Source: Boseongicola aestuarii
GTDB taxonomy: Bacteria; Pseudomonadota; Alphaproteobacteria; Rhodobacterales; Rhodobacteraceae
Direction: 5' to 3'
Assembly (NCBI RefSeq): GCF_900184815.1
Contig: NZ_FXXQ01000011.1
Coordinates: 1 to 64,000, forward strand
DNA length: 64,000 nucleotides
Positions 1,740 to 37,260 of this stretch are shown here, one piece after another. Position 1 is the stretch's first letter, and the number at the start of each line of letters is the position of its first letter. A model generated the notes under the pieces. That model was not told the DNA's origin and ran no database searches. It was given only the letters and a program-made list of their open reading frames with translations. A program made the translations under genes and the position numbers.

Positions 1740-3035
1740 TCACTCCACCCACACCCTCTCCAAAGCCTCCCGCATCACGTCAATCGCATAGCCTGACCCA
1801 TAGTTTGCCGCCACAGTGTTGGCGCTGTGTCCCAGGATGGCCATTGAGAGGTGCTCAGGACAGCCAGAGTTGCGCAGCTTGTCCTTCATGCGGTGCCGGA
1901 GGGAGTGCATGGTAATCTTCTTGTCCGCGATGACGGTCCGCAGCCGCTTCATCAGCATGGCTGAGGCACTGTCGTTGCCACGAGGTTTGGCGTAGGCGGG
2001 GAAGATGGGGTCGGTATCGGAGAGCCCAACCTGATGCTCTCTGAGGCACTCTGCAGCTCTCTGGGACAGCGGGATACTTCTGCTGGAGGTCTTAGTCTTG
2101 AGGCCTCGGCGGTCATTGGGCCGGATGTGCAGGATGGCGTTATCTAGGTCCACATCTTTGGCCTCCAGCCCTGTGATCTCCGCCAAGCGGGCCCCTGTGT
2201 CTGTCAGGAGGAGAAGCAGAGCCTTGGCAGTGTCGTTACTGGCAAAGGCAGGTCCCATGAGTGTGAGTTGTTCATCCGTAATGGGAAGCCGATCAGTGCT
2301 ACTGCTTCCCGCCCCCTTGATCTTGATCGCCTGGAACACATTCCTGAAGTCCAGGTCATGTTCCAGCAGAGCGTGATTGATGGCCGCCTTCACCACACCA
2401 AGGTTCCGCTGCACAGAGTTGGGGGACATACGCGCCAGCAAGACGTCACGATAGGTGTTGGCATCAGCGCGGGTGAGGTCTTGTAGCTCTGTCCACTCAT
2501 AGCGGTTCTTGCCGAGGCTCAGGATGAGGTCTTTACGGATACGGTCCAGCCGTGTGCCCAGGCCATTGTCTGCATCCTCTGCTTTATAGGCATAGTATTC
2601 ATCGAGGACCCGAGAGAGCGACATGGGTGCTGCCTTGGAGGTGGCGGCTCGGATCTGCTGTGTGACACCTTTGGGCACAGCGTGCTCGACATCCTCAGCA
2701 AGGTCCTGGAAGTCGTCGTACTCTGGCCACTCAGGGTCGACAGCTCCTTCGATGAACATGGACTGGTGCCGTTCTCCCAGCCGCTCCCGCACCAACTCTC
2801 TGGCTCGTTGCTCATCTGTGGTGCGCCGTTCTCGATCAAAAAGGGCCTCAATATCCGCGTGAACCTTGGGCAAAGCACGAAGGGCATCTTGATAGGTGTT
2901 GCCCAGCTGGCGGTACACGGTGGCCTTAGAAATCACCTTCCGCAGGTCTTTGGGAACATTCCTTTTATACCGGAAAGAGCCGTTGGCCCGGCGGAACATG
3001 TAGCGTGGGAGCTTGAGCGGCATTGCCTGATCCAT
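1740..3035 (-). CDS. Tyrosine recombinase / site-specific integrase
   Basis: This 431-residue protein has the catalytic set of the lambda-integrase family in its C-terminal half: Arg I in TDTGARLAEITGL, the HxxR box in HSLRHRMKDKL, the second His in GHSANTVAANYG, and the Tyr nucleophile in that same segment. The N-terminus (LPRYMFRRANGSFRYKRNVP) resembles the small N-terminal domain common in proteobacterial island integrases. The enzyme should catalyse integration and excision of a mobile element. It reads away from tRNA-Leu(CAG), whose 3' end faces it 175 bp upstream, the usual layout of an island inserted in a tRNA 3' end. The start is ambiguous between ATG 3035 and ATG 3023, neither with a good SD. 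Confidence 0.92.
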   Translation of the reverse strand: MDQAMPLKLPRYMFRRANGSFRYKRNVPKDLRKVISKATVYRQLGNTYQDALRALPKVHADIEALFDRERRTTDEQRARELVRERLGERHQSMFIEGAVDPEWPEYDDFQDLAEDVEHAVPKGVTQQIRAATSKAAPMSLSRVLDEYYAYKAEDADNGLGTRLDRIRKDLILSLGKNRYEWTELQDLTRADANTYRDVLLARMSPNSVQRNLGVVKAAINHALLEHDLDFRNVFQAIKIKGAGSSSTDRLPITDEQLTLMGPAFASNDTAKALLLLLTDTGARLAEITGLEAKDVDLDNAILHIRPNDRRGLKTKTSSRSIPLSQRAAECLREHQVGLSDTDPIFPAYAKPRGNDSASAMLMKRLRTVIADKKITMHSLRHRMKDKLRNSGCPEHLSMAILGHSANTVAANYGSGYAIDVMREALERVWVE

Positions 3036-3209: not shown

Positions 3210-3296
3210 TGGTGCCCAGGAGAGGACTCGAACCTCCACATCGTTGCCAATACTAGCACCTGAAGCTAGCGCGTCTACCAATTCCGCCACCTGGGC
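3210..3296 (-). tRNA. tRNA-Leu (anticodon CAG)
   Basis: The reverse strand starts GCCCAGGTGGCGGAATTGG and ends CCTGGGC-A-CCA, giving a perfect 7-bp acceptor stem, an A discriminator and an encoded CCA. The anticodon loop TTCAGGT places CAG at positions 34-36, and the long variable arm and GGTTCGAGTCC T-arm fit a class II leucine tRNA of 87 nt. The 3' end points to the integrase, so this is the probable attachment site of the element on the left. I saw no second copy of the tRNA 3' end in the window; the other att site should lie beyond the left edge. Confidence 0.96.
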
Positions 3297-3425: not shown

Positions 3426-4406
3426 ATGTCGAAACTTGTAACAATATATGGCGGATCAGGCTTTGTGGGCCGGTATATTGCGCAGCGGATGGCGCGTCAG
3501 GGGTGGCGCGTGCGTGTTGCGGTCAGACGACCGAATGATGCGCATTTCGTAAAGCCATACGGCGTCGTCGGTCAGGTCGAGCCGGTGTTTTGCAACATTC
3601 GCGATGACGATAGCGTGCGGGCCGTTATGTCGGGCGCGGAGGCCGTGATTAACTGCGTCGGTACATTTGATGCCAAGGGAAAGAACAATTTCGACGCCGT
3701 GCAGGACGAAGGGGCCGAGCGAATCGCTCGAATTGCTGCGGAAACGGGCGTTGCGCGGATGGTGCATATCTCGGCCATTGGGGCCAAAACGGATGCGCCA
3801 AGTCGCTACGGCCAGACGAAGGGTCTAGGAGAAGACGGCGTCCTGGCGGCCATGCCAAACGCCGTTATCCTGCGGCCTTCGGTTGTCTTTGGACCCGAGG
3901 ATCAGTTCTTCAATCGGTTTGCGGCCATGGCGCGGATGTCGCCGATTGTGCCGTTGTTCGGTGCGGATACGAGATTTCAGCCGGTCTATGTCGATGACGT
4001 GGCGGCGGCGGCGGAGCTGGGTGCGACCGGCAAAGCAGCGCCGGGGGTTTACGAGCTTGGTGGCCCCGAGGTCGCGACATTCCGTGCGTTGATTGAAACA
4101 ATGCTGCAAGTGATCCGCCGCCGTCGCCTTGTCGTCGGTTTTCCATTCTGGCTGGGCCGGTTTCTGGCGACCGTGACCGGAGCGGTGTCCGCTTTGACGG
4201 GTGGTCTGGCACCTCAGCCCGTGACCGACGATCAACTGAAAGAGTTGACGCGCGACAATGTCGTTGGTGGGAATGCTCAAGGTTTTGAAGCACTTGGGAT
4301 CACTCCAAAATCGCTTGATGCGATCCTGCCAAGCTATTTGTGGATGTTCCGCCCGTCGGGCCAGTATGCTGAACTGAAAGAAAGCGCGCGTAACCTGAAG
4401 GGTTAG
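3426..4406 (+). CDS. NDUFA9-like NAD(P)-binding short-chain reductase
   Basis: The protein is 326 residues. ATG 3426 is chosen because AAGGA lies just upstream and the Rossmann motif GGSGFVGRYIAQ begins about nine residues in. It belongs to the atypical SDR family that includes the complex I accessory subunit NDUFA9 (conserved SAIGA and YGQTKGLGE, the latter standing where extended SDRs have YxxxK). Bacterial members are variously linked to complex I or ubiquinone biosynthesis, and the substrate is not predictable here. The C-terminus has a hydrophobic stretch around VVGFPFWLGRFLATVTGAVS, suggesting membrane association. It converges on uppP with a 4-nt overlap of the two stop ends. Confidence 0.85.
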   Translation: MSKLVTIYGGSGFVGRYIAQRMARQGWRVRVAVRRPNDAHFVKPYGVVGQVEPVFCNIRDDDSVRAVMSGAEAVINCVGTFDAKGKNNFDAVQDEGAERIARIAAETGVARMVHISAIGAKTDAPSRYGQTKGLGEDGVLAAMPNAVILRPSVVFGPEDQFFNRFAAMARMSPIVPLFGADTRFQPVYVDDVAAAAELGATGKAAPGVYELGGPEVATFRALIETMLQVIRRRRLVVGFPFWLGRFLATVTGAVSALTGGLAPQPVTDDQLKELTRDNVVGGNAQGFEALGITPKSLDAILPSYLWMFRPSGQYAELKESARNLKG

Positions 4407-5206
4407 GCGTAGGCGATCCATAGCAACACAAGACCGAGAATGACGCGGTAGATCACGTATGGCGTGAAGCTGATGCTGCGCAAAAGGCGCATCATCATCG
4501 CGAGGGCCGCAAGCGCCATTATGAATGCAAAAACCACTGCGATTGTGGCGTCTTTGGCGGCGGCAGCGTCCATTGTGAAGGCAACTTCTGCCCCGAGCAG
4601 GACGCCCGAAGCAAGGATCGTTGGGATCGACATGAGCATGGCGAGACGGGCGGCGTCCCCGCGCGCGTAGCCGAGGCGACGCGCGGCCGTTATGGTAATG
4701 CCCGAACGGGATGTGCCGGGGATCAGAGCGAGGGTTTGGGCCAACCCCATGGTGATTGCGTCTTTGATGCCCCAGTGTTCAGCGGTTTTTTCGGTTGGCC
4801 CCGTTTGGTCTGCCCAGTAAAGCACCAACCCGAAAATCAGGGTCATCCAGCCGACGACCATCACCGAGCGGAGCGTGTCGTCAAAACCGGTAAGCTTGAA
4901 GATGAGCCCAACGAGAATGACGGGAATCGTCGCGATGATTAGGCAAAGTGCCAGCCAGGCGTTCTGGTCGTCGATCTGACGACGGACGACTTTGGGAAGG
5001 CCAAGAAGGACACGCTTCACGTCCGTCCAGAAGTAGAGCACGACCGCGCCGAGCGTACCGACGTGAACGGCGACATCAATGACCTGACCCTGATCGTCCA
5101 TTCCTGTCAGGTTGGGCAACAGAATGAGGTGCCCTGAACTGGAGACGGGCAGGAATTCGGTGATACCCTGGATTACGGCGACAAGGATAAGATGGAGTAT
5201 GGGCAT
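4403..5206 (-). CDS. uppP: Undecaprenyl-diphosphatase
   Basis: The product is 267 residues, an integral membrane enzyme that dephosphorylates undecaprenyl pyrophosphate to recycle the lipid carrier for peptidoglycan and surface polysaccharides; loss or excess affects bacitracin sensitivity. Both family motifs are visible: the glutamate-rich GITEFLPVSSSGH (residues 14-26, catalytic Glu17 region) and PGTSRSG (163-169). Several hydrophobic helices lie between and after them. Length and N-terminus (MPILHLILVAVIQG) match the family, supporting the ATG at 5206. A 221-bp gap with the TTTAGGTC motifs separates it from divergent gltD. Confidence 0.95.
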   Translation of the reverse strand: MPILHLILVAVIQGITEFLPVSSSGHLILLPNLTGMDDQGQVIDVAVHVGTLGAVVLYFWTDVKRVLLGLPKVVRRQIDDQNAWLALCLIIATIPVILVGLIFKLTGFDDTLRSVMVVGWMTLIFGLVLYWADQTGPTEKTAEHWGIKDAITMGLAQTLALIPGTSRSGITITAARRLGYARGDAARLAMLMSIPTILASGVLLGAEVAFTMDAAAAKDATIAVVFAFIMALAALAMMMRLLRSISFTPYVIYRVILGLVLLWIAYA

Positions 5207-5271: not shown

Positions 5272-5353
5272 TTTAGGTCACGTACCGGACCTAAAATTAC
5301 GCGACTGCGGCATAAAACCATACAATACCGTGTCGAAAAACGCTATTTAGGTC
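5272..5353. promoter_or_regulatory. Candidate operator: three TTTAGGTC boxes upstream of gltD
   Basis: TTTAGGTC at 5272-5279 and GACCTAAA at 5288-5295 form a perfect 8-bp inverted repeat with an 8-nt spacer. A third TTTAGGTC lies at 5346-5353. A -10-like TACAAT (5321-5326) falls between the palindrome and the single box, so the palindrome would sit near or upstream of the -35 of a gltD promoter. The regulator is unknown to me. The region also serves divergent uppP. Confidence 0.55.
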
Positions 5354-5427
5354 AGCACTACTGCCTTTTCTTTTTACAGAACTGCGAATATCAGGGCGTT
5401 CTGGAATTTTTGGAAGAGGTCCGGGTC

Positions 5428-6861
5428 ATGGCCGAGAATGCGATGCTTAAGTTTGTCTCAACACCACGCGACATGCCTGAAAAGCGTGATGCCACGGTAC
5501 GCCGTGAGGATTTCCATGAGATTTACGCCGAGTACGCGGACCAGAAGGCCAAAGAGCAGGCAAGCCGGTGCAGCCAGTGTGGCGTGCCCTATTGTCAGAC
5601 GCATTGCCCGCTGCACAACAATATCCCGGACTGGTTGAAACTGACGGCCGAAGGGCGACTGCGCGAAGCCTATGAGTTGTCGCAGGAAACCAACGCTTTC
5701 CCCGAAATTTGTGGGCGGATTTGCCCTCAGGACCGGCTTTGCGAGGGCAATTGCGTGATTGAGCAATCCGGCCACGGCACAGTGACGATCGGGTCGGTCG
5801 AAAAATACATCACCGATACGGCATGGGAAAACGGCTGGGTGCAGCCAATTGCTCCGCGCGCCGAGCGGAGCGAGAGCGTTGGGATTATCGGCGCGGGTCC
5901 AGGCGGATTGGCAGCGGCGGATCGACTGCGCCGCGCGGGCGTGCAGGTCACGATCTATGATCGCTATGACCGCGCCGGCGGCTTGCTAACCTACGGTATT
6001 CCGGGCTTCAAGCTGGAGAAGGACGTCGTGATGCGGCGCAACGAGCAGCTTGAAAAGGGCGGCGTTGAATTCGTGCTGAACTGCAATGTCGGCGAGGACA
6101 TCACTTTTGACGAATTGCAGGCCAAACACGACGCAATCCTCATTGCTACAGGCGTTTACAAGTCCCGCGAGCTGGACGCGCCGGGTGTTGGAGCGGAAGG
6201 AATTGTGCGGGCGATCGACTATCTGACGGCCTCGAACCGCAAGTCCTTTGGCGATGAAGTGCCGGAATTTGACGCAGGCTTGCTGGATGCGGAAGACAAG
6301 CGCGTCGTCGTGATCGGCGGCGGCGACACGGCAATGGACTGTGTTCGCACGGCGATCCGTCAGGGCGCGGAAAGCGTGAAATGCCTCTATCGCCGCGACA
6401 AGGCGAACATGCCAGGCTCGCAGCGCGAGGTGCAGAACGCGGAAGAAGAAGGTGTGGAATTCGTCTGGCTATCGGCGCCCAAAGGGTTCACTGGCGATGA
6501 GGTCGAGGGCGTGATGGTGCAGAAGATGCGCCTTGGCGCGCCGGATGCGACGGGCCGTCAGGTGCCGGAGCTGATCGAAGGGTCGGATTACGTCGAAGGC
6601 GCAGATCTGGTGATCAAGGCGCTGGGGTTCGAGCCCGAGGACCTGCCGAAACTGTGGGGCGTAGATGGTCTTGAAGTGACGCGCTGGGGCACGATCAAGG
6701 CCGACTACAAAACGCACGTAACCAACATTCCAGGTGTCTATGCGGCGGGCGACATTGTGCGTGGCGCGTCATTGGTTGTCTGGGCGATCCGCGATGGTCG
6801 CGAAGCCGCAGACGCGATTTTGGATCAGTTCAGCGGGGCGGCTCAGGTGGCCGCAGAGTGA
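5428..6861 (+). CDS. gltD: Glutamate synthase, small (beta) subunit
   Basis: This 477-residue NADPH-dependent flavoprotein feeds electrons to the large subunit for glutamine + 2-oxoglutarate to two glutamate. The N-terminal iron-sulfur domain has Cys48, 51, 56 and 60 (CSQCGVPYCQTHC) and a second cysteine cluster at about 95-109 (CGRICPQDRLCEGNC). The FAD-binding Rossmann motif GIIGAGPGGLAAADRL starts near residue 153, and the NADPH motif VVIGGGDTAMDC lies near residue 290. ATG 5428 is chosen over upstream in-frame starts because GGAAGAGG precedes it and GltD homologues start close to here. First gene of a unit with the GFA-family gene and gltB. Confidence 0.96.
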   Translation: MAENAMLKFVSTPRDMPEKRDATVRREDFHEIYAEYADQKAKEQASRCSQCGVPYCQTHCPLHNNIPDWLKLTAEGRLREAYELSQETNAFPEICGRICPQDRLCEGNCVIEQSGHGTVTIGSVEKYITDTAWENGWVQPIAPRAERSESVGIIGAGPGGLAAADRLRRAGVQVTIYDRYDRAGGLLTYGIPGFKLEKDVVMRRNEQLEKGGVEFVLNCNVGEDITFDELQAKHDAILIATGVYKSRELDAPGVGAEGIVRAIDYLTASNRKSFGDEVPEFDAGLLDAEDKRVVVIGGGDTAMDCVRTAIRQGAESVKCLYRRDKANMPGSQREVQNAEEEGVEFVWLSAPKGFTGDEVEGVMVQKMRLGAPDATGRQVPELIEGSDYVEGADLVIKALGFEPEDLPKLWGVDGLEVTRWGTIKADYKTHVTNIPGVYAAGDIVRGASLVVWAIRDGREAADAILDQFSGAAQVAAE

Positions 6862-6968
6862 CGTCGGTACAACGTCGGTATGACGTCGGTGCGCCCGTTC
6901 GCAGGGTTAGGGATTTGGAAACCACATGGGACAGCATCGCTGACCGTTCGGGTTAAAGGGAAGTGAAG

Positions 6969-7394
6969 ATGGCTCGGAAGACCGGACAGTGTCTGTGTGG
7001 CGCGGTGACGTTCACCGCTGTCGTCGGCGATGCTATCCAGGCTTGCCATTGCGTCCAGTGTCAGCGCTGGACCGGCGGCGGTCCCTACTTTGCCGTCGAG
7101 GTCGAGGCACTTGAATTGTCGGGTGGAGACGTGCTGCGCGAATATCACGCAAGCACCTGGGGCGAGCGCGTGGTTTGCGGCACCTGTGGGTCGACCGTTT
7201 ACTGGAAGATGCAAGGCAAGGCCCCGCGCACGATTGCGGCGGGTCTTTTGGACGATCAGTCCGGCCTGCGCGTGACAGAAGAGATTTTCGTCGATTACCG
7301 GCCGGGGTGGCTGCCGCCTTTTGAAGGTGCGGCACAATCCACTGAAGCGCAGGAAATGGCGAAACTGGAAGAATTTCTGGCCGGTCAAACTTGA
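6969..7394 (+). CDS. GFA-family (CENP-V fold) zinc-binding protein
   Basis: The product is 141 residues. Three paired cysteine groups typical of the GFA/CENP-V Zn fold are present: QCLCGAV near the N-terminus, CHCVQCQ near residue 30, and VCGTCGS near residue 73. The family was named for glutathione-dependent formaldehyde-activating enzyme, but most members have no proven activity, so function is open. ATG 6969 is preferred over GTG 6963 because AAGGG would be only 2 nt from the GTG. It is placed between gltD and gltB with gaps of 107 and 43 bp, so it is probably co-transcribed with glutamate synthase. Its role there is unknown. Confidence 0.88.
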   Translation: MARKTGQCLCGAVTFTAVVGDAIQACHCVQCQRWTGGGPYFAVEVEALELSGGDVLREYHASTWGERVVCGTCGSTVYWKMQGKAPRTIAAGLLDDQSGLRVTEEIFVDYRPGWLPPFEGAAQSTEAQEMAKLEEFLAGQT

Positions 7395-7437: not shown

Positions 7438-10400
7438 ATGACGACATATGATGCAAACTGGGCCGCCGCCGAAGAAGAGCGTCGCAGGTGGATGAGCGAG
7501 CATTCTCTGTTTCGCGCGGACGACGAACATGCGTCGTGCGGCGTGGGCCTTGTGGTTGCGATCGACGGCAAGCGGTCACGCAAGGTCGTTCAGAACGGTA
7601 TCGATGCGCTGAAAGCTGTCTGGCACCGGGGTGCGGTCGATGCCGACGGCAAGACTGGCGACGGTGCGGGCATTCACGTGCAGATCCCTTATGCGTTTTT
7701 CGGCGACATGATCGAACGCACCGGCCATGCGCCGCGCGAAGGTGAGATGCTGGCCGTGGGTCAGGTGTTCCTGCCCCGCACGAATTTCGGCGCGCAGGAA
7801 ACCTGCCGGACGATCATCGAAACCGAAATTCTGCGGATGGGCTATTACATTTATGGCTGGCGTCACGTGCCGGTGAAGATCGATGTGCTGGGTGAGAAAG
7901 CCAACGCGACGCGGCCCGAGATCGAGCAGATCCTGATTTCCAACTCGAAGGGCGTGGATGAGGAGACGTTCGAGCGCGAGCTTTACGTGATCCGTCGTCG
8001 GGTTGAGAAAGCGGCGGCGGCGGCGCAGGTACCGACTTTGTATCTGGCATCGCTGTCGTGCCGGTCGATCATCTACAAGGGCATGATGCTGGCGCAGGAT
8101 GTGGCCGAGTTTTATCCCGACCTGAAAGACGAACGTTTCGAGAGTGCCTTTGCGATCTATCACCAGCGGTACTCGACGAACACCTTCCCTCAGTGGTGGC
8201 TGGCGCAGCCGTTCCGCATGTTGGCGCACAACGGCGAGATCAACACTCTGAAGGGCAACGTGAACTGGATGAAGTCTCACGAGATCCGCATGGCGTCGAG
8301 CGCGTTCGGCGATATGGCCGAGGACATCAAGCCGATCATTCCGCAAGGTTCGAGCGACTCGGCAGCGTTGGATTCAGTGTTTGAGGTGTTGGTGCGCGCG
8401 GGGCGGACTGCGCCGATGGCCAAGACGATGCTGGTGCCGGAAAGCTGGTCGAAGCAGGCGGTGGAACTGCCGCAGTCGTGGATCGACATGTATTCCTATT
8501 GCAACGCGGTGATGGAACCGTGGGACGGGCCTGCCGCCTTGGCGATGACGGACGGGCGCTGGGTTTGTGCAGGACTGGATCGCAACGGATTGCGCCCGAT
8601 GCGGTATACGGTGACAGGTGATGGTCTGCTGATTGCGGGGTCCGAGACAGGGATGGTGCCTACGAACGAAGGCACGGTCGTCGAGAAGGGCGCGCTTGGT
8701 CCCGGACAGATGATCGCCGTCGATATGGCGACCGGCAAGCTGTTCCACGACACTGAAATGAAGGAGGTTCTGGCCGAAGCGGCGCCATTCAGCGAGTGGA
8801 TTTCCAAGGTTGCCGAGATGGACGAGGTTCTGGCCAGTGTGACGGAGAAGCCCGTGTTCACGGGCAACGAGTTGCGGCGGCGTCAGGTGGCTGCAGGTTA
8901 TTCGATCGAGGAGCTGGAGCAAATTCTTGCGCCGATGGCGGAGGATGGCAAAGAGACGCTGGCCTCGATGGGTGATGACACGCCGTCCGCAGTCTTGTCC
9001 AAGATGTACCGGCCGTTGAGCCATTACTTCCGGCAGAACTTTAGCCAGGTGACGAACCCGCCAATCGACAGCTTGCGGGAATTCCGGGTGATGAGTCTGA
9101 AGACCCGTTTCGGGAACCTGAAGAACGTGCTGGATCAGGACAGCAGTCAGACCGAAATCATCGTGCTGGACAGCCCTTTCCTTGGGAATGCGCAGTTTGA
9201 CCGCCTGAAAGAAGCGTTTGACGATGGCATGGTCGAGATCGACTGCACCTTCCCTTCTGGTGGCTCGCAAGGCGCGCTTCAAGCCGCTCTGGAGCGTATT
9301 CGCGCCGAAGCCGAGGACGCGGTGCGTTCGGGGGCCGGGCATCTGGTTCTGACGGATCAGGCATCGGGCGATGGCAAAGTCGCGACGCCGATGATCCTTG
9401 CGACCAGCGCGGTGCATTCGTGGCTGACCCGCAAGGGTCTTCGCACCTTCTGTTCGCTGAACGTGCGATCTGCTGAGTGCATTGACCCGCATTACTTCGC
9501 GGTGCTGATCGGCTGCGGTGCGACTACGGTAAACGCGTATCTGGCCGAAGACAGTATTGCGGATCGGATCGAACGCGGGCTGATCGACGGCACATTGACC
9601 GAGGCCGTGGCGCGGTATCGTGCCGCGATCGATGCGGGTCTTTTGAAGATCATGTCAAAGATGGGCATTTCGGTCGTCTCGTCCTATCGCGGTGGTCTGA
9701 ACTTCGAGGCTGTTGGCCTCAGCCGTGCTTTGGTCGCCGAGTATTTCCCCGGCATGCACTCGCGCATCTCGGGCATTGGTATCGGCGGTTTGCAAAAGAA
9801 GGCCGAAGCGGTTCATGCCAAGGGCTTCGCGGGTGACTCTGTCTTGCCAATCGGCGGCTTTTACAAAGCCCGTCGGACGGGCGAAACGCACGCTTGGGAA
9901 GCAACGTCGATGCATCTGTTGCAGGCGGCCTGTACCAAAGCGTCCTACGCGATGTGGCAGCAATACTTGGCCAAGATGAAGTCGAACCCACCGATCCATT
10001 TGCGCGACCTGCTGGACATCAAGCCGATGGCCAAGCCCGTGCCGATCGAAGAGGTCGAAAGCATCACGTCGATACGCAAGCGGTTCGTGACGCCCGGCAT
10101 GTCACTTGGGGCGCTCAGCCCTGAGGCGCACAAGACGCTGAACGTCGCGATGAACCGCATAGGTGCGAAATCCGACAGCGGTGAAGGCGGCGAAGATCCG
10201 GCGCACTTTGTGCCAGAGCCGAACGGCGACAACCCGTCTGCGAAGATCAAGCAAGTGGCCTCGGGGCGTTTTGGCGTCACGGCGGAATATCTGAACCAGT
10301 GCGAAGAGCTTGAGATCAAGGTTGCTCAGGGCGCCAAGCCAGGTGAGGGTGGTCAGCTTCCGGGGATGAAGGTCACCGAATTGATCGCGCGTCTTCGGCA

Positions 10401-11973
10401 CTCTACGCCTGGCGTGACGCTGATCTCGCCACCGCCACACCACGACATCTATTCTATCGAGGATCTGGCGCAGCTGATCTATGACCTGAAGCAGATCAAC
10501 CCGCGTGCCAAGGTGACCGTGAAGCTGGTCGCGGCATCGGGGGTCGGCACGATTGCCGCTGGTGTTGCCAAGGCAAAGGCGGATGTGATCCTGATTTCCG
10601 GCCACAACGGCGGCACGGGTGCCTCGCCCGCGACATCGATCAAATACGCGGGTTTGCCGTGGGAAATGGGCCTGACAGAAGCGCATCAGGTTCTTTCGAT
10701 GAACAACCTTCGCAGCCGCGTGACATTGCGGACCGACGGTGGTTTGCGCACGGGCCGTGACATCGTCATGGCAGCCATGATGGGGGCCGAGGAATTCGGT
10801 ATCGGCACCGCCGCGCTAATCGCGATGGGTTGTATCATGGTTCGTCAGTGCCAATCGAACACGTGCCCTGTCGGCGTCTGTACGCAGGACGAGGAGTTGC
10901 GCAAGAAGTTCACCGGCGACGCGGACAAGGTGGTGAATCTCATTACCTTCTACGCACAGGAAGTCCGCGAGATTCTGGCGTCGATCGGCGCGCGATCTCT
11001 GGCGGATGTGATTGGCCGGGCGGATCTCTTGTCTCAGGTCAGCCGAGGTGCGGCGCATCTCGATGATCTCGACCTGAACCCGCTTCTGATCACGGTCGAT
11101 GGCGCGGAACAGGTTGACTATGCCACGGCGAAAGAACGCAACCCCGTCGACGACACACTGGACGCCGAGATCGTGCGCGACGCGGCTCGGTTCCTGGATG
11201 ACGGCGAGAAAATGCAGCTTGGGTATTCTGTACGCAACACGCACCGGACTATTGGCACACGCACGTCCAGTCACATCGTCAAGCGGTTCGGTATGCGGAA
11301 TTCTCTGCAACCCGACCACCTGTCGATCCGTCTGGCGGGCTCTGCCGGTCAGTCGCTTGGGGCTTTTGCGGCACCAGGCCTAAGGATCGAAGTGTCGGGC
11401 GATGCGAATGATTATGTCGGAAAGGGTCTGTCGGGCGGCACTTTGGTCGTGCGGCCACCGAAGATCTCACCTCTGGTAGCGGCGGACAACGTCATCATCG
11501 GCAACACGGTGCTTTATGGTGCGACGGACGGCTATCTCTTTGCCGCCGGACGAGCGGGCGAGCGTTTCGCAGTGCGAAATTCGGGCGCGAAAGTTGTGGT
11601 CGAGGGCGTCGGCTCGAACGGGTGCGAGTATATGACCGGCGGAGTTGCTGTCATCATCGGCAGCATCGGTCCGAATTTCGGCGCAGGGATGACCGGCGGC
11701 ATGGCCTATCTTTATGATCCTGACCGGACCGCGCTTTCCATGATGAACCTTGAGACGATTGTCACCGTTCCGGTGAACGAAGGCGTCTATGAAGACGAAC
11801 TGAAAGGCTTGATCCAACGCCATCATCAGGAGAGCGGCAGCGCACGCGCCGCCGAGATCCTGCAACACTGGGACGAGGAAAAGCTGCACTTCCACCAGAT
11901 TTGCCCGAAAGAGATGCTGAATAAGCTGAAGGTGCCGCTTCGGGGTCTCGATATGGCGGTTCCGGCGGAATAA
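7438..11973 (+). CDS. gltB: Glutamate synthase, large (alpha) subunit
   Basis: The protein is 1511 residues, the expected size. A propeptide of about 33 residues precedes Cys34 (ASCGVG), the nucleophile of the class II glutamine amidotransferase domain after processing. The order is amidotransferase, central domain, FMN-binding TIM barrel with the [3Fe-4S] cysteines in CQSNTCPVGVC, and a C-terminal GXGXG beta-helix (GKGLSGGTLVV). Ammonia from glutamine is tunnelled to 2-oxoglutarate. ATG 7438 has a GCAGGAG SD at 7425-7430; longer in-frame starts overlap the GFA gene and would displace the propeptide. A strong terminator follows at 11996. Confidence 0.97.
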   Translation: MTTYDANWAAAEEERRRWMSEHSLFRADDEHASCGVGLVVAIDGKRSRKVVQNGIDALKAVWHRGAVDADGKTGDGAGIHVQIPYAFFGDMIERTGHAPREGEMLAVGQVFLPRTNFGAQETCRTIIETEILRMGYYIYGWRHVPVKIDVLGEKANATRPEIEQILISNSKGVDEETFERELYVIRRRVEKAAAAAQVPTLYLASLSCRSIIYKGMMLAQDVAEFYPDLKDERFESAFAIYHQRYSTNTFPQWWLAQPFRMLAHNGEINTLKGNVNWMKSHEIRMASSAFGDMAEDIKPIIPQGSSDSAALDSVFEVLVRAGRTAPMAKTMLVPESWSKQAVELPQSWIDMYSYCNAVMEPWDGPAALAMTDGRWVCAGLDRNGLRPMRYTVTGDGLLIAGSETGMVPTNEGTVVEKGALGPGQMIAVDMATGKLFHDTEMKEVLAEAAPFSEWISKVAEMDEVLASVTEKPVFTGNELRRRQVAAGYSIEELEQILAPMAEDGKETLASMGDDTPSAVLSKMYRPLSHYFRQNFSQVTNPPIDSLREFRVMSLKTRFGNLKNVLDQDSSQTEIIVLDSPFLGNAQFDRLKEAFDDGMVEIDCTFPSGGSQGALQAALERIRAEAEDAVRSGAGHLVLTDQASGDGKVATPMILATSAVHSWLTRKGLRTFCSLNVRSAECIDPHYFAVLIGCGATTVNAYLAEDSIADRIERGLIDGTLTEAVARYRAAIDAGLLKIMSKMGISVVSSYRGGLNFEAVGLSRALVAEYFPGMHSRISGIGIGGLQKKAEAVHAKGFAGDSVLPIGGFYKARRTGETHAWEATSMHLLQAACTKASYAMWQQYLAKMKSNPPIHLRDLLDIKPMAKPVPIEEVESITSIRKRFVTPGMSLGALSPEAHKTLNVAMNRIGAKSDSGEGGEDPAHFVPEPNGDNPSAKIKQVASGRFGVTAEYLNQCEELEIKVAQGAKPGEGGQLPGMKVTELIARLRHSTPGVTLISPPPHHDIYSIEDLAQLIYDLKQINPRAKVTVKLVAASGVGTIAAGVAKAKADVILISGHNGGTGASPATSIKYAGLPWEMGLTEAHQVLSMNNLRSRVTLRTDGGLRTGRDIVMAAMMGAEEFGIGTAALIAMGCIMVRQCQSNTCPVGVCTQDEELRKKFTGDADKVVNLITFYAQEVREILASIGARSLADVIGRADLLSQVSRGAAHLDDLDLNPLLITVDGAEQVDYATAKERNPVDDTLDAEIVRDAARFLDDGEKMQLGYSVRNTHRTIGTRTSSHIVKRFGMRNSLQPDHLSIRLAGSAGQSLGAFAAPGLRIEVSGDANDYVGKGLSGGTLVVRPPKISPLVAADNVIIGNTVLYGATDGYLFAAGRAGERFAVRNSGAKVVVEGVGSNGCEYMTGGVAVIIGSIGPNFGAGMTGGMAYLYDPDRTALSMMNLETIVTVPVNEGVYEDELKGLIQRHHQESGSARAAEILQHWDEEKLHFHQICPKEMLNKLKVPLRGLDMAVPAE

Positions 11974-35349: not shown

Positions 35350-37260
35350 ATGGGTAAAGTCATCGGTATTGACCTTGGTACCACCAACAGCTGCGTCGCC
35401 ATCATGGACGGCAGCCAGCCAAGGGTCATCGAGAACGCAGAAGGCGCACGCACGACACCGTCGATCGTGGCTTTCAAAGACGACGAACGCCTCGTCGGTC
35501 AGCCTGCCAAACGCCAGGCCGTCACCAACCCTGAAAACACCGTATTCGCGGTGAAGCGCCTGATCGGCCGCCGGGTGGATGATGATGCGGTTACAAAAGA
35601 CAAGGCAATCGTCCCTTACGACATCGTCGATGGCGGCAATGGAGACGCATGGGTCAAAGCCGGTGAGAAGAAGTATTCTCCTTCACAGATTTCGGCCTTT
35701 ATCCTTGGCAAAATGAAAGAGACCGCCGAGAGCTATCTTGGCGAAGAAGTCACGCAAGCCGTTATCACGGTTCCTGCGTATTTCAACGACGCCCAGCGTC
35801 AGGCCACCAAGGACGCCGGCAAGATCGCCGGTCTGGAAGTGCTGCGGATCATCAACGAGCCGACAGCCGCCGCACTTGCCTATGGTCTCGACAAGAAAGA
35901 AACGAAAACCATCGCGGTCTATGACCTTGGTGGCGGTACGTTCGACATTACCATTCTTGAGATTGACGACGGTCTGTTCGAAGTGAAATCTACCAACGGC
36001 GACACGTTCCTCGGCGGTGAAGACTTCGACATGCGCATCGTCAATTACCTCGCCGACGAGTTCAAAAAGGAACACGGCGCGGATCTGAAGAAAGACAAGA
36101 TGGCGCTGCAGCGTCTCAAGGAAGCTGCTGAAAAAGCGAAAATCGAGTTGTCTTCGTCCAGCCAGACCGAGATCAACCAGCCGTTCATTTCGATGGACAA
36201 GGAATCGGGCCAGCCGTTGCACATGGTTATGAAGCTGACCCGCGCCAAGCTGGAAAGCCTGGTGTCTGACCTGATCAAGAACTCGATCAAGCCATGTCAG
36301 GCGGCTTTGAAAGACGCTGGCCTCTCGACCTCCGACATTGACGAGATTGTTCTCGTCGGTGGTATGACCCGTATGCCGCGCGTCGTCGAAGAAGTGACCA
36401 AGTTCTTCGGAAAAGAGCCGCACAAGGGTGTGAACCCGGACGAAGTGGTTGCCTTGGGTGCTGCCATTCAGGCCGGCGTTCTGCAGGGTGATGTGAAAGA
36501 CGTCGTTCTTCTGGACGTGACACCGCTTTCGCTTGGAATCGAAACGCTCGGTGGCGTGTTCACACGCCTGATCGACCGCAACACGACGATCCCGACGAAG
36601 AAGTCGCAGATCTTCTCGACCGCGGAAGATAACCAGAACGCCGTGACGCTGCGCGTGTTCCAGGGCGAGCGCGAAATGGCCTCCGACAACAAATTGCTGG
36701 GCCAATTCAACCTTGAGGACATCCCGCCAGCACCACGCGGCATGCCACAGATCGAAGTGACCTTTGACATCGACGCCAACGGCATCGTTGAGGTGACCGC
36801 AAAAGACAAGGGCACCGGTAAAGAGCACAAGATCACGATCCAGGCATCCGGTGGTCTTTCGGACGAGGATATCGAAAAGATGGTCAAGGACGCCGAGGCG
36901 AACGCCGAAGCCGACAAGGGCCGCAAGGATCTCGTCGAAGCCAAGAACGCGGCAGAAAGCCTCATCCACTCGACCGAAAAGGCGATGGAAGAGCACAAAG
37001 ACAAGGTCGACCCAACCACGATCGAAGCGATCGAGCTGGCGATTGCCAACCTGACCGAACAGATGGAAACCGAAGATGCGGGCAAAATCCGCGGCGGCAT
37101 CCAGAACGTGACCGAAGCGGCAATGAAGCTGGGCGAAGCGATCTACAAGGCGCAACAGGAAGAGTCCGGTGAGGGCGAACCTGAAGAAGAAATGCGCGGC
37201 GTAGATGACGACATTGTTGATGCCGACTTCGAAGATCTCGACAACGACAAGCGCGCTTAA
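35350..37260 (+). CDS. dnaK: Hsp70 chaperone DnaK
   Basis: The product is 636 residues, an ATP-dependent folding chaperone. The ATPase domain begins [20 protein letters not shown], includes [20 protein letters not shown] and [13 protein letters not shown], and the linker is [18 protein letters not shown]. The C-terminus ends in the acidic [11 protein letters not shown], close to the EEVD-like tail of bacterial DnaK. A GAGGA SD precedes the ATG. Transcription from the RpoH-type promoter at 35208 is expected; dnaJ follows with a 78-bp gap holding a hairpin, and grpE is not in the window. Confidence 0.98.

What the first reader, a model, noticed from the sequence alone, without database searches (positions are those of the whole stretch)
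5272..5353. TTTAGGTC inverted repeat plus third box in front of gltD
An 8-bp perfect inverted repeat with 8-nt spacer and a third identical half-site 66 nt further on is unlikely by chance. It suggests a dedicated regulator of glutamate synthase in this lineage, with possible looping across the promoter.
Basis: seen in the sequence. Interest (0 to 1): 0.5.

Follow-up and report, generated by a model that had tools for sequence, protein, structure and literature searches.

The report
Operators for an ilvE-linked MarR regulator
The repeated TTTAGGTC boxes in front of the glutamate synthase gene are parts of two paired protein-binding sites, kept across the bacterial family and probably read by a little-studied MarR-type regulator that appears to sit on its own promoter in much of the Alphaproteobacteria.

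Summary
The boxes are real, but they belong to two operators. Site A (5272-5295) is the inverted repeat; the third box is the left half of a second palindrome, site B (5348-5368). Site B is found in 144 of 145 family gltD upstreams and site A lies 72.5-75 bp away, about seven helical turns, in 117 of 121 called cases. A weak third copy (site C, 6926-6948) follows gltD. In this genome the motif also occurs between ilvE and a divergent MarR gene plus OmpR-type response regulator, and between a LysR gene and indolepyruvate oxidoreductase. Outside the family, 25 of 28 MarR homologues have the site near their own start; 0 of 27 LysR homologues do. A matrix from those 25 foreign MarR operators finds sites in 139 of 145 family gltD upstreams. 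So the ilvE-linked MarR protein is the likeliest binder. Half-sites come in two flavours (AGGTCCG, AGGTMA), and flavour goes with dyad spacing, which suggests one dimer with two binding registers; on a tree this is not significant. Binding, direction of control and ligand are untested.

The parts
5272..5295 (.). Site A: TTTAGGTC-N8-GACCTAAA; left half of AGGTCA flavour, right half of CGGACCT flavour, centre 5283.5
5346..5370 (+). Site B (the third box is its left arm); palindrome TAGGTCA-N7-TGCCTTT at 5348-5368, centre 5358, 74.5 bp from the centre of A
   Evidence: matrix score 14.0, the best in the window
5389..5394 (+). Putative -10 element (TATCAG); its TA is conserved at this distance from site B in 144 aligned upstreams; would put B at about -43 and A at about -117 (inferred)
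   Evidence: the simple promoter scan found none here
5428..6861 (+). gltD, glutamate synthase small subunit
   Evidence: gene name by my reading
6926..6948 (+). Site C: weak third copy (GGACAGCATCGCTGACC core) between gltD and the next gene
   Evidence: scores only 1.9 with the matrix
6963..7394 (+). GFA-family gene between gltD and gltB
7438..11973 (+). gltB, glutamate synthase large subunit (ORF runs from 7321; the ATG at 7438 is my choice of start; name by my reading)
4403..5206 (-). uppP/bacA, divergent from gltD; site A lies 66-89 nt upstream of its start

Best explanation
Sites A, B and probably C are operators of the MarR-family protein that is encoded divergently from ilvE (own genome G000:C36:65218-65721) together with an OmpR-type response regulator. 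A dimer binds each palindrome. At gltD two dimers sit about seven helical turns apart, B over the -35 region and A about 117 bp upstream of the predicted start, which looks like an activator layout with a poor -35. At its own promoter and at the indolepyruvate oxidoreductase promoter the site lies between -35-like and -10-like letters, which looks like repression. Each half-site can be of two flavours, and the CCG flavour sits one base nearer the dyad, so sites with two, one or no CCG halves have 7, 8 and 9 bases between AGGTC and GACCT; the window's A is a mixed 8-base site. Shown: sites, conservation, the spacing trend, presence at the MarR promoter across the class. Inferred: which protein binds, the direction of control, co-operation between A and B.
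For: Site B in 144 of 145 correctly read family upstreams of 200 bases or more, 16 or more of 21 letters; A-B centre distance 72.5-75 in 117 of 121 called, within a search range of roughly 50-86. A de novo search of 56 marR upstreams finds sites such as GAATGTCAACAAGGCTGACATAA in 55, and in the 56th, L182, once read correctly. Outside the family 25 of 28 fetched marR homologues (of 49 genomes with a hit) have the site with 12 or more of 14 letters; 0 of 27 LysR homologues exceed the matrix threshold. The matrix from those 25 finds 139 of 145 family gltD upstreams above the 99% level of shuffles (8.5); 106 of 146 best hits are centred at -80 to -61. Outside the family, gltD has a site in 21 of 34 genomes with the MarR gene and 2 of 11 without (Fisher p 0.017). 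Two CCG halves: 19 of 19 at the shortest spacing; one: 22 of 28 at the middle; none: 63 of 74 at the longest. The ilvE-side sites, 27 of 42 with two CCG halves, are short in 38 of 42. TKQSL-RVL is invariant in 14 aligned homologues, 12 of them from outside the family.
Against: No binding data. G023 (91% complete) has both gltD sites but no MarR hit; G216 and G213 have a gltD site without a MarR hit. 13 of 34 genomes with MarR show no strong gltD site. The matrix also finds 28 of 30 LysR-oxidoreductase regions of the family, so it does not by itself separate the two proteins there. The window's own A scores only 3.2 and C only 1.9, because the matrix assumes the longest spacing. In one search a looser pattern gave 2 own-genome hits, B and C, but its reversed control gave 7. 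The spacing rule is not significant on a tree: of 9 independent pairs about 4 agree, 0 disagree, 5 are uninformative (median p 0.125), and of 4 pairs for the two shorter classes about 1 agrees. In many other families the marR site overlaps the MarR start codon (ATGGCTGAC), so part of its conservation could be coding; in the window's family the site is kept with that ATG lost.
Confidence: 0.72

Rival explanations
1. The LysR-type protein encoded beside indolepyruvate oxidoreductase binds gltD sites; B-type sites fit the T-N11-A rule for such proteins (rule recalled).
For: A B-type site lies in 28 of 30 LysR-oxidoreductase intergenic regions of the family; LysR gene in 147 of 150 family genomes.
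Against: 0 of 27 LysR homologues outside the family keep the site, while 25 of 28 MarR homologues do. The homologues outside may not all be true orthologues. Short sites (T-N9-A) break the rule. One palindrome between -35 and -10 is unusual for this family (recall).
Confidence: 0.12
2. Two proteins share the region: one reads CCG-flavour sites, another AGGTCA sites, and site A swaps owner between genera.
For: The two flavours differ in core and spacing; site A is CCG type in some genera and AGGTCA type in others.
Against: Mixed sites with the intermediate spacing are common: 22 of 28 one-CCG sites, and the window's is one. Both types stand in the ilvE-marR region.
Confidence: 0.15
3. The OmpR-type response regulator encoded behind the MarR gene is the binder.
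For: A homologue lies in the same locus as the MarR gene in 24 of 28 loci outside the family.
Against: Such regulators usually bind direct repeats (recall); these sites are inverted repeats.
Confidence: 0.06
4. Chance repeat, or a hairpin acting as a terminator.
For: One terminator-like hit coincides with site A on the - strand; such repeat clusters are common in shuffled windows.
Against: Conserved place and sequence in the family, with the arms' spacing and flavour varying in step; rare in the intergenic region by chance.
Confidence: 0.02

Closest known systems
MarR-family autoregulated regulons
   Same: MarR-domain protein (Pfam MarR_2), palindromic operator at its own divergent promoter
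   Different: Targets are glutamate synthase, ilvE and an oxidoreductase; operators come in three dyad spacings that go with half-site flavour
LdtR of Liberibacter and Sinorhizobium
   Same: Alphaproteobacterial MarR protein that activates and may have two sites in one promoter (passages of PMC3999280 and PMC5481520)
   Different: Published LdtR motif ATATTCCTTGTATTTTAA is unlike these sites by eye; it is linked to the ldtP L,D-transpeptidase gene and many others
PetP/PetR of Rhodobacter capsulatus (PetP recalled; PetR seen in passages of PMC9603854)
   Same: A MarR-like gene followed by an OmpR-type response regulator (recall)
   Different: PetR is described upstream of the cytochrome bc1 operon; here the neighbours are ilvE and genes of the histone-deacetylase, polyprenyl-synthase and DXP-synthase families; identity with PetP was not tested
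NtrC, Fur and IscR control of gltBD/gltDB
   Same: Control of the same genes: NtrC in several Proteobacteria including some alphaproteobacteria (PMC5343134, passages); IscR and Fur discussed for gltDB in Caulobacter (PMC11475020, passages)
   Different: Those sites were not compared here; the protein proposed here is of another family

Membership tests
MarR regulon | Regulator has a MarR winged-helix domain | tested here: met
   Pfam MarR_2 3.1e-11, 43.7 bits against a cut-off of 27
MarR regulon | Palindromic operator at the regulator's own promoter | tested here: met
   56 of 56 in the family, 25 of 28 outside
MarR regulon | Same operator at gltD | tested here: met
   139 of 145 above the 99% shuffle level; outside the family 21 of 34
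MarR regulon | Direct binding, relieved or changed by a ligand | not testable with these tools
   Needs protein and DNA
LysR-type regulation | T-N11-A box (recalled) | tested here: inconclusive
   Site B and the oxidoreductase site fit; the window's site A (T-N10-A) and most ilvE-side sites (T-N9-A) do not
LysR-type regulation | Box kept beside the LysR gene across the class | tested here: not met
   0 of 27 outside the family
NtrC, Fur or IscR regulation | Their binding sites at this promoter | not tested
   Sites not compared
LdtR regulon | LdtR operator sequence | tested here: inconclusive
   Published motif (PMC5481520, passage) compared by eye only; unlike sites A and B

The most novel reading that the evidence does not exclude
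One pan-alphaproteobacterial MarR dimer, encoded with a response regulator beside ilvE, governs glutamate supply (gltDB), branched-chain transamination (ilvE) and, in this family, aryl-pyruvate oxidation, and reads half-sites in two registers one base apart, so operators can drift between three spacings without losing function.
Probability: 0.4. Interest if true: 0.65.

Novelty: new member of a known kind. Interest (0 to 1): 0.5.

Why it matters
It names a testable regulator for glutamate synthase in a large group of bacteria and links it to branched-chain and aromatic amino-acid metabolism. Control of gltBD by NtrC, IscR or Fur is already discussed for some alphaproteobacteria (PMC5343134, PMC11475020, passages), but no MarR protein for it turned up in my searches of open-access papers. 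It also proposes a simple rule for how half-site type goes with operator spacing.

Tried and rejected
Chance and terminator readings: rejected on conservation. LysR as binder: first favoured because of T-N11-A and the oxidoreductase site, set aside after the class-level comparison. LdtR: motif differs by eye. Own-genome pattern hits (16 rows on both strands, reversed control 8): besides the glt, ilvE-marR and oxidoreductase sites, most lie in or beside unrelated genes by my reading and were not followed. Pattern searches of 150 family genomes: 57 places against 24 for the reversed control, 41 against 4. Site C: weak in the window, but 62 of 136 family loci have a match of 10 or more of 12 letters within 200 bases after gltD, 56 of them at 40-130, against 10 of 319 window tiles. 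The gltB distances used a query that I translated out of frame and are not used.

Rows dropped, misread or repeated: of 149 family gltD upstreams, 3 are shorter than 200 bases; L244 was misread because its gene starts 128 bases into the contig (read correctly it has a site B); L074 has a poor site B. The spacing count used 144: 121 called, 14 none, 9 ties. L182 was misread and L371; one search mends this. L206 and L215 lack a clear LysR-region site. In one search about half the loci were read on the wrong strand; one search repeats it. Loci were fetched only for the best 30 matches of a search, so the 28 marR and 28 LysR homologues outside the family are the closest ones. Searches list the same 150 family genomes; the same 96 of the class. 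The window tiles (1 of 244 above 8.5) miss a hit of 12.5 at 35355 that spans a tile border; by my reading it is the start of a DnaK-like coding sequence.

Literature: PMC5343134, PMC11475020, PMC3999280, PMC5481520 and PMC9603854 were seen as found passages; PMC10888616 was opened for one term and gave none; all others as search listings.

Full report
Observation. By repeat statistics alone they are not remarkable in 64 kb (41 of 100 shuffles hold a comparable cluster), though they are rare within the 221-bp intergenic region (0 of 5000 full-length shuffles).

Conservation. Upstreams of gltD from 80 named loci show exact TTAGGTC or GACCTAA in about half of them, mostly near two places, and a common 25-base pattern, site B, in nearly all. 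Of 145 correctly read family upstreams of 200 bases or more, 144 have it. Site A is found 72.5-75 bp from B in 117 of 121 called cases. The third box of the finding is the left arm of site B. A conserved TA 43-44 bases after the start of the B pattern, with T-rich letters in the -35 position, suggests a -10 element and puts B near -43; the simple scan found no consensus sigma-70 promoter there.

Other places. Pattern searches of 150 family genomes and clustering of the neighbouring ORFs gave two recurrent loci besides gltD: the intergenic region of a LysR gene and indolepyruvate oxidoreductase, and that of ilvE and a MarR gene followed by an OmpR-type response regulator. Of the 30 loci fetched (of 41 places) for the CCG-type pattern, 18 fall at ilvE-marR and 11 at gltD. 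In the marR region a de novo search found a second, stronger site, so that region too has two sites, 62-63 bp apart in 37 of 42 called, of 55.

Which protein. Both candidate genes are nearly universal in the family (148 and 147 of 150). Outside it, 25 of 28 MarR homologues have the operator near their own start, 0 of 27 LysR homologues do, and the ilvE-marR-regulator neighbourhood is kept (ilvE in 26, regulator in 24 of 28). A matrix built only from those foreign marR operators, with its centre masked, finds sites in 139 of 145 family gltD upstreams above the 99% level of shuffles, in 28 of 30 family LysR-oxidoreductase regions, and in 21 of 34 other gltD upstreams with the MarR gene in the genome against 2 of 11 without. 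Three genomes have gltD sites but no MarR hit: G023, G216 and G213; the first two are 91% and 90% complete, G213 95%.

Spacing rule. With cores called without the flavour letters, the number of CCG halves goes with the dyad spacing (Spearman -0.85). Related genomes are not independent: the spacing class changes at least 26 times on a gltD tree of 109 rows, but the tests of independent pairs have too few informative pairs to reach significance. The ilvE-side sites (short, mostly CCG) and the marR and oxidoreductase sites (long, TGTCA or GGTCA) obey the rule. The window's A is a mixed site with the intermediate spacing; G004, of the same genus, has the same spacing.

Mechanism. I think a dimer of the ilvE-linked MarR protein binds each site, represses its own gene and the oxidoreductase, and activates or otherwise sets gltDB from B with help from A. 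Site A may also act on uppP. The direction of control, the co-operation of A and B and the signal are inferences. The name PetP for this protein is recall and was not tested.

Verdict. I file it as a new regulon of a known regulator family, with an interesting but unproven register rule.

Noticed in passing
window 1743-3029 (-) and 3210-3296 (-): Phage-type integrase gene (Pfam Phage_integrase) just beside a tRNA-Leu(CAG), a common integration arrangement.
   Followed up: no
L272 about 65100-65150 of G000:C36, and the ilvE-marR regions of the family: The ilvE-side site is flanked on both sides by conserved TTGCGC(AA) words, possibly sites of another regulator.
   Followed up: no
marR loci outside the family, L318-L345: In many families the marR operator overlaps the likely MarR start codon; in the window's family the corresponding letters read AAG and the gene starts further on.
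   Followed up: partly
L307 (G000:C31:544425): A 2-mismatch copy of the motif lies before what reads as an acetolactate synthase large subunit gene (my reading of the translation); may be chance.
   Followed up: no
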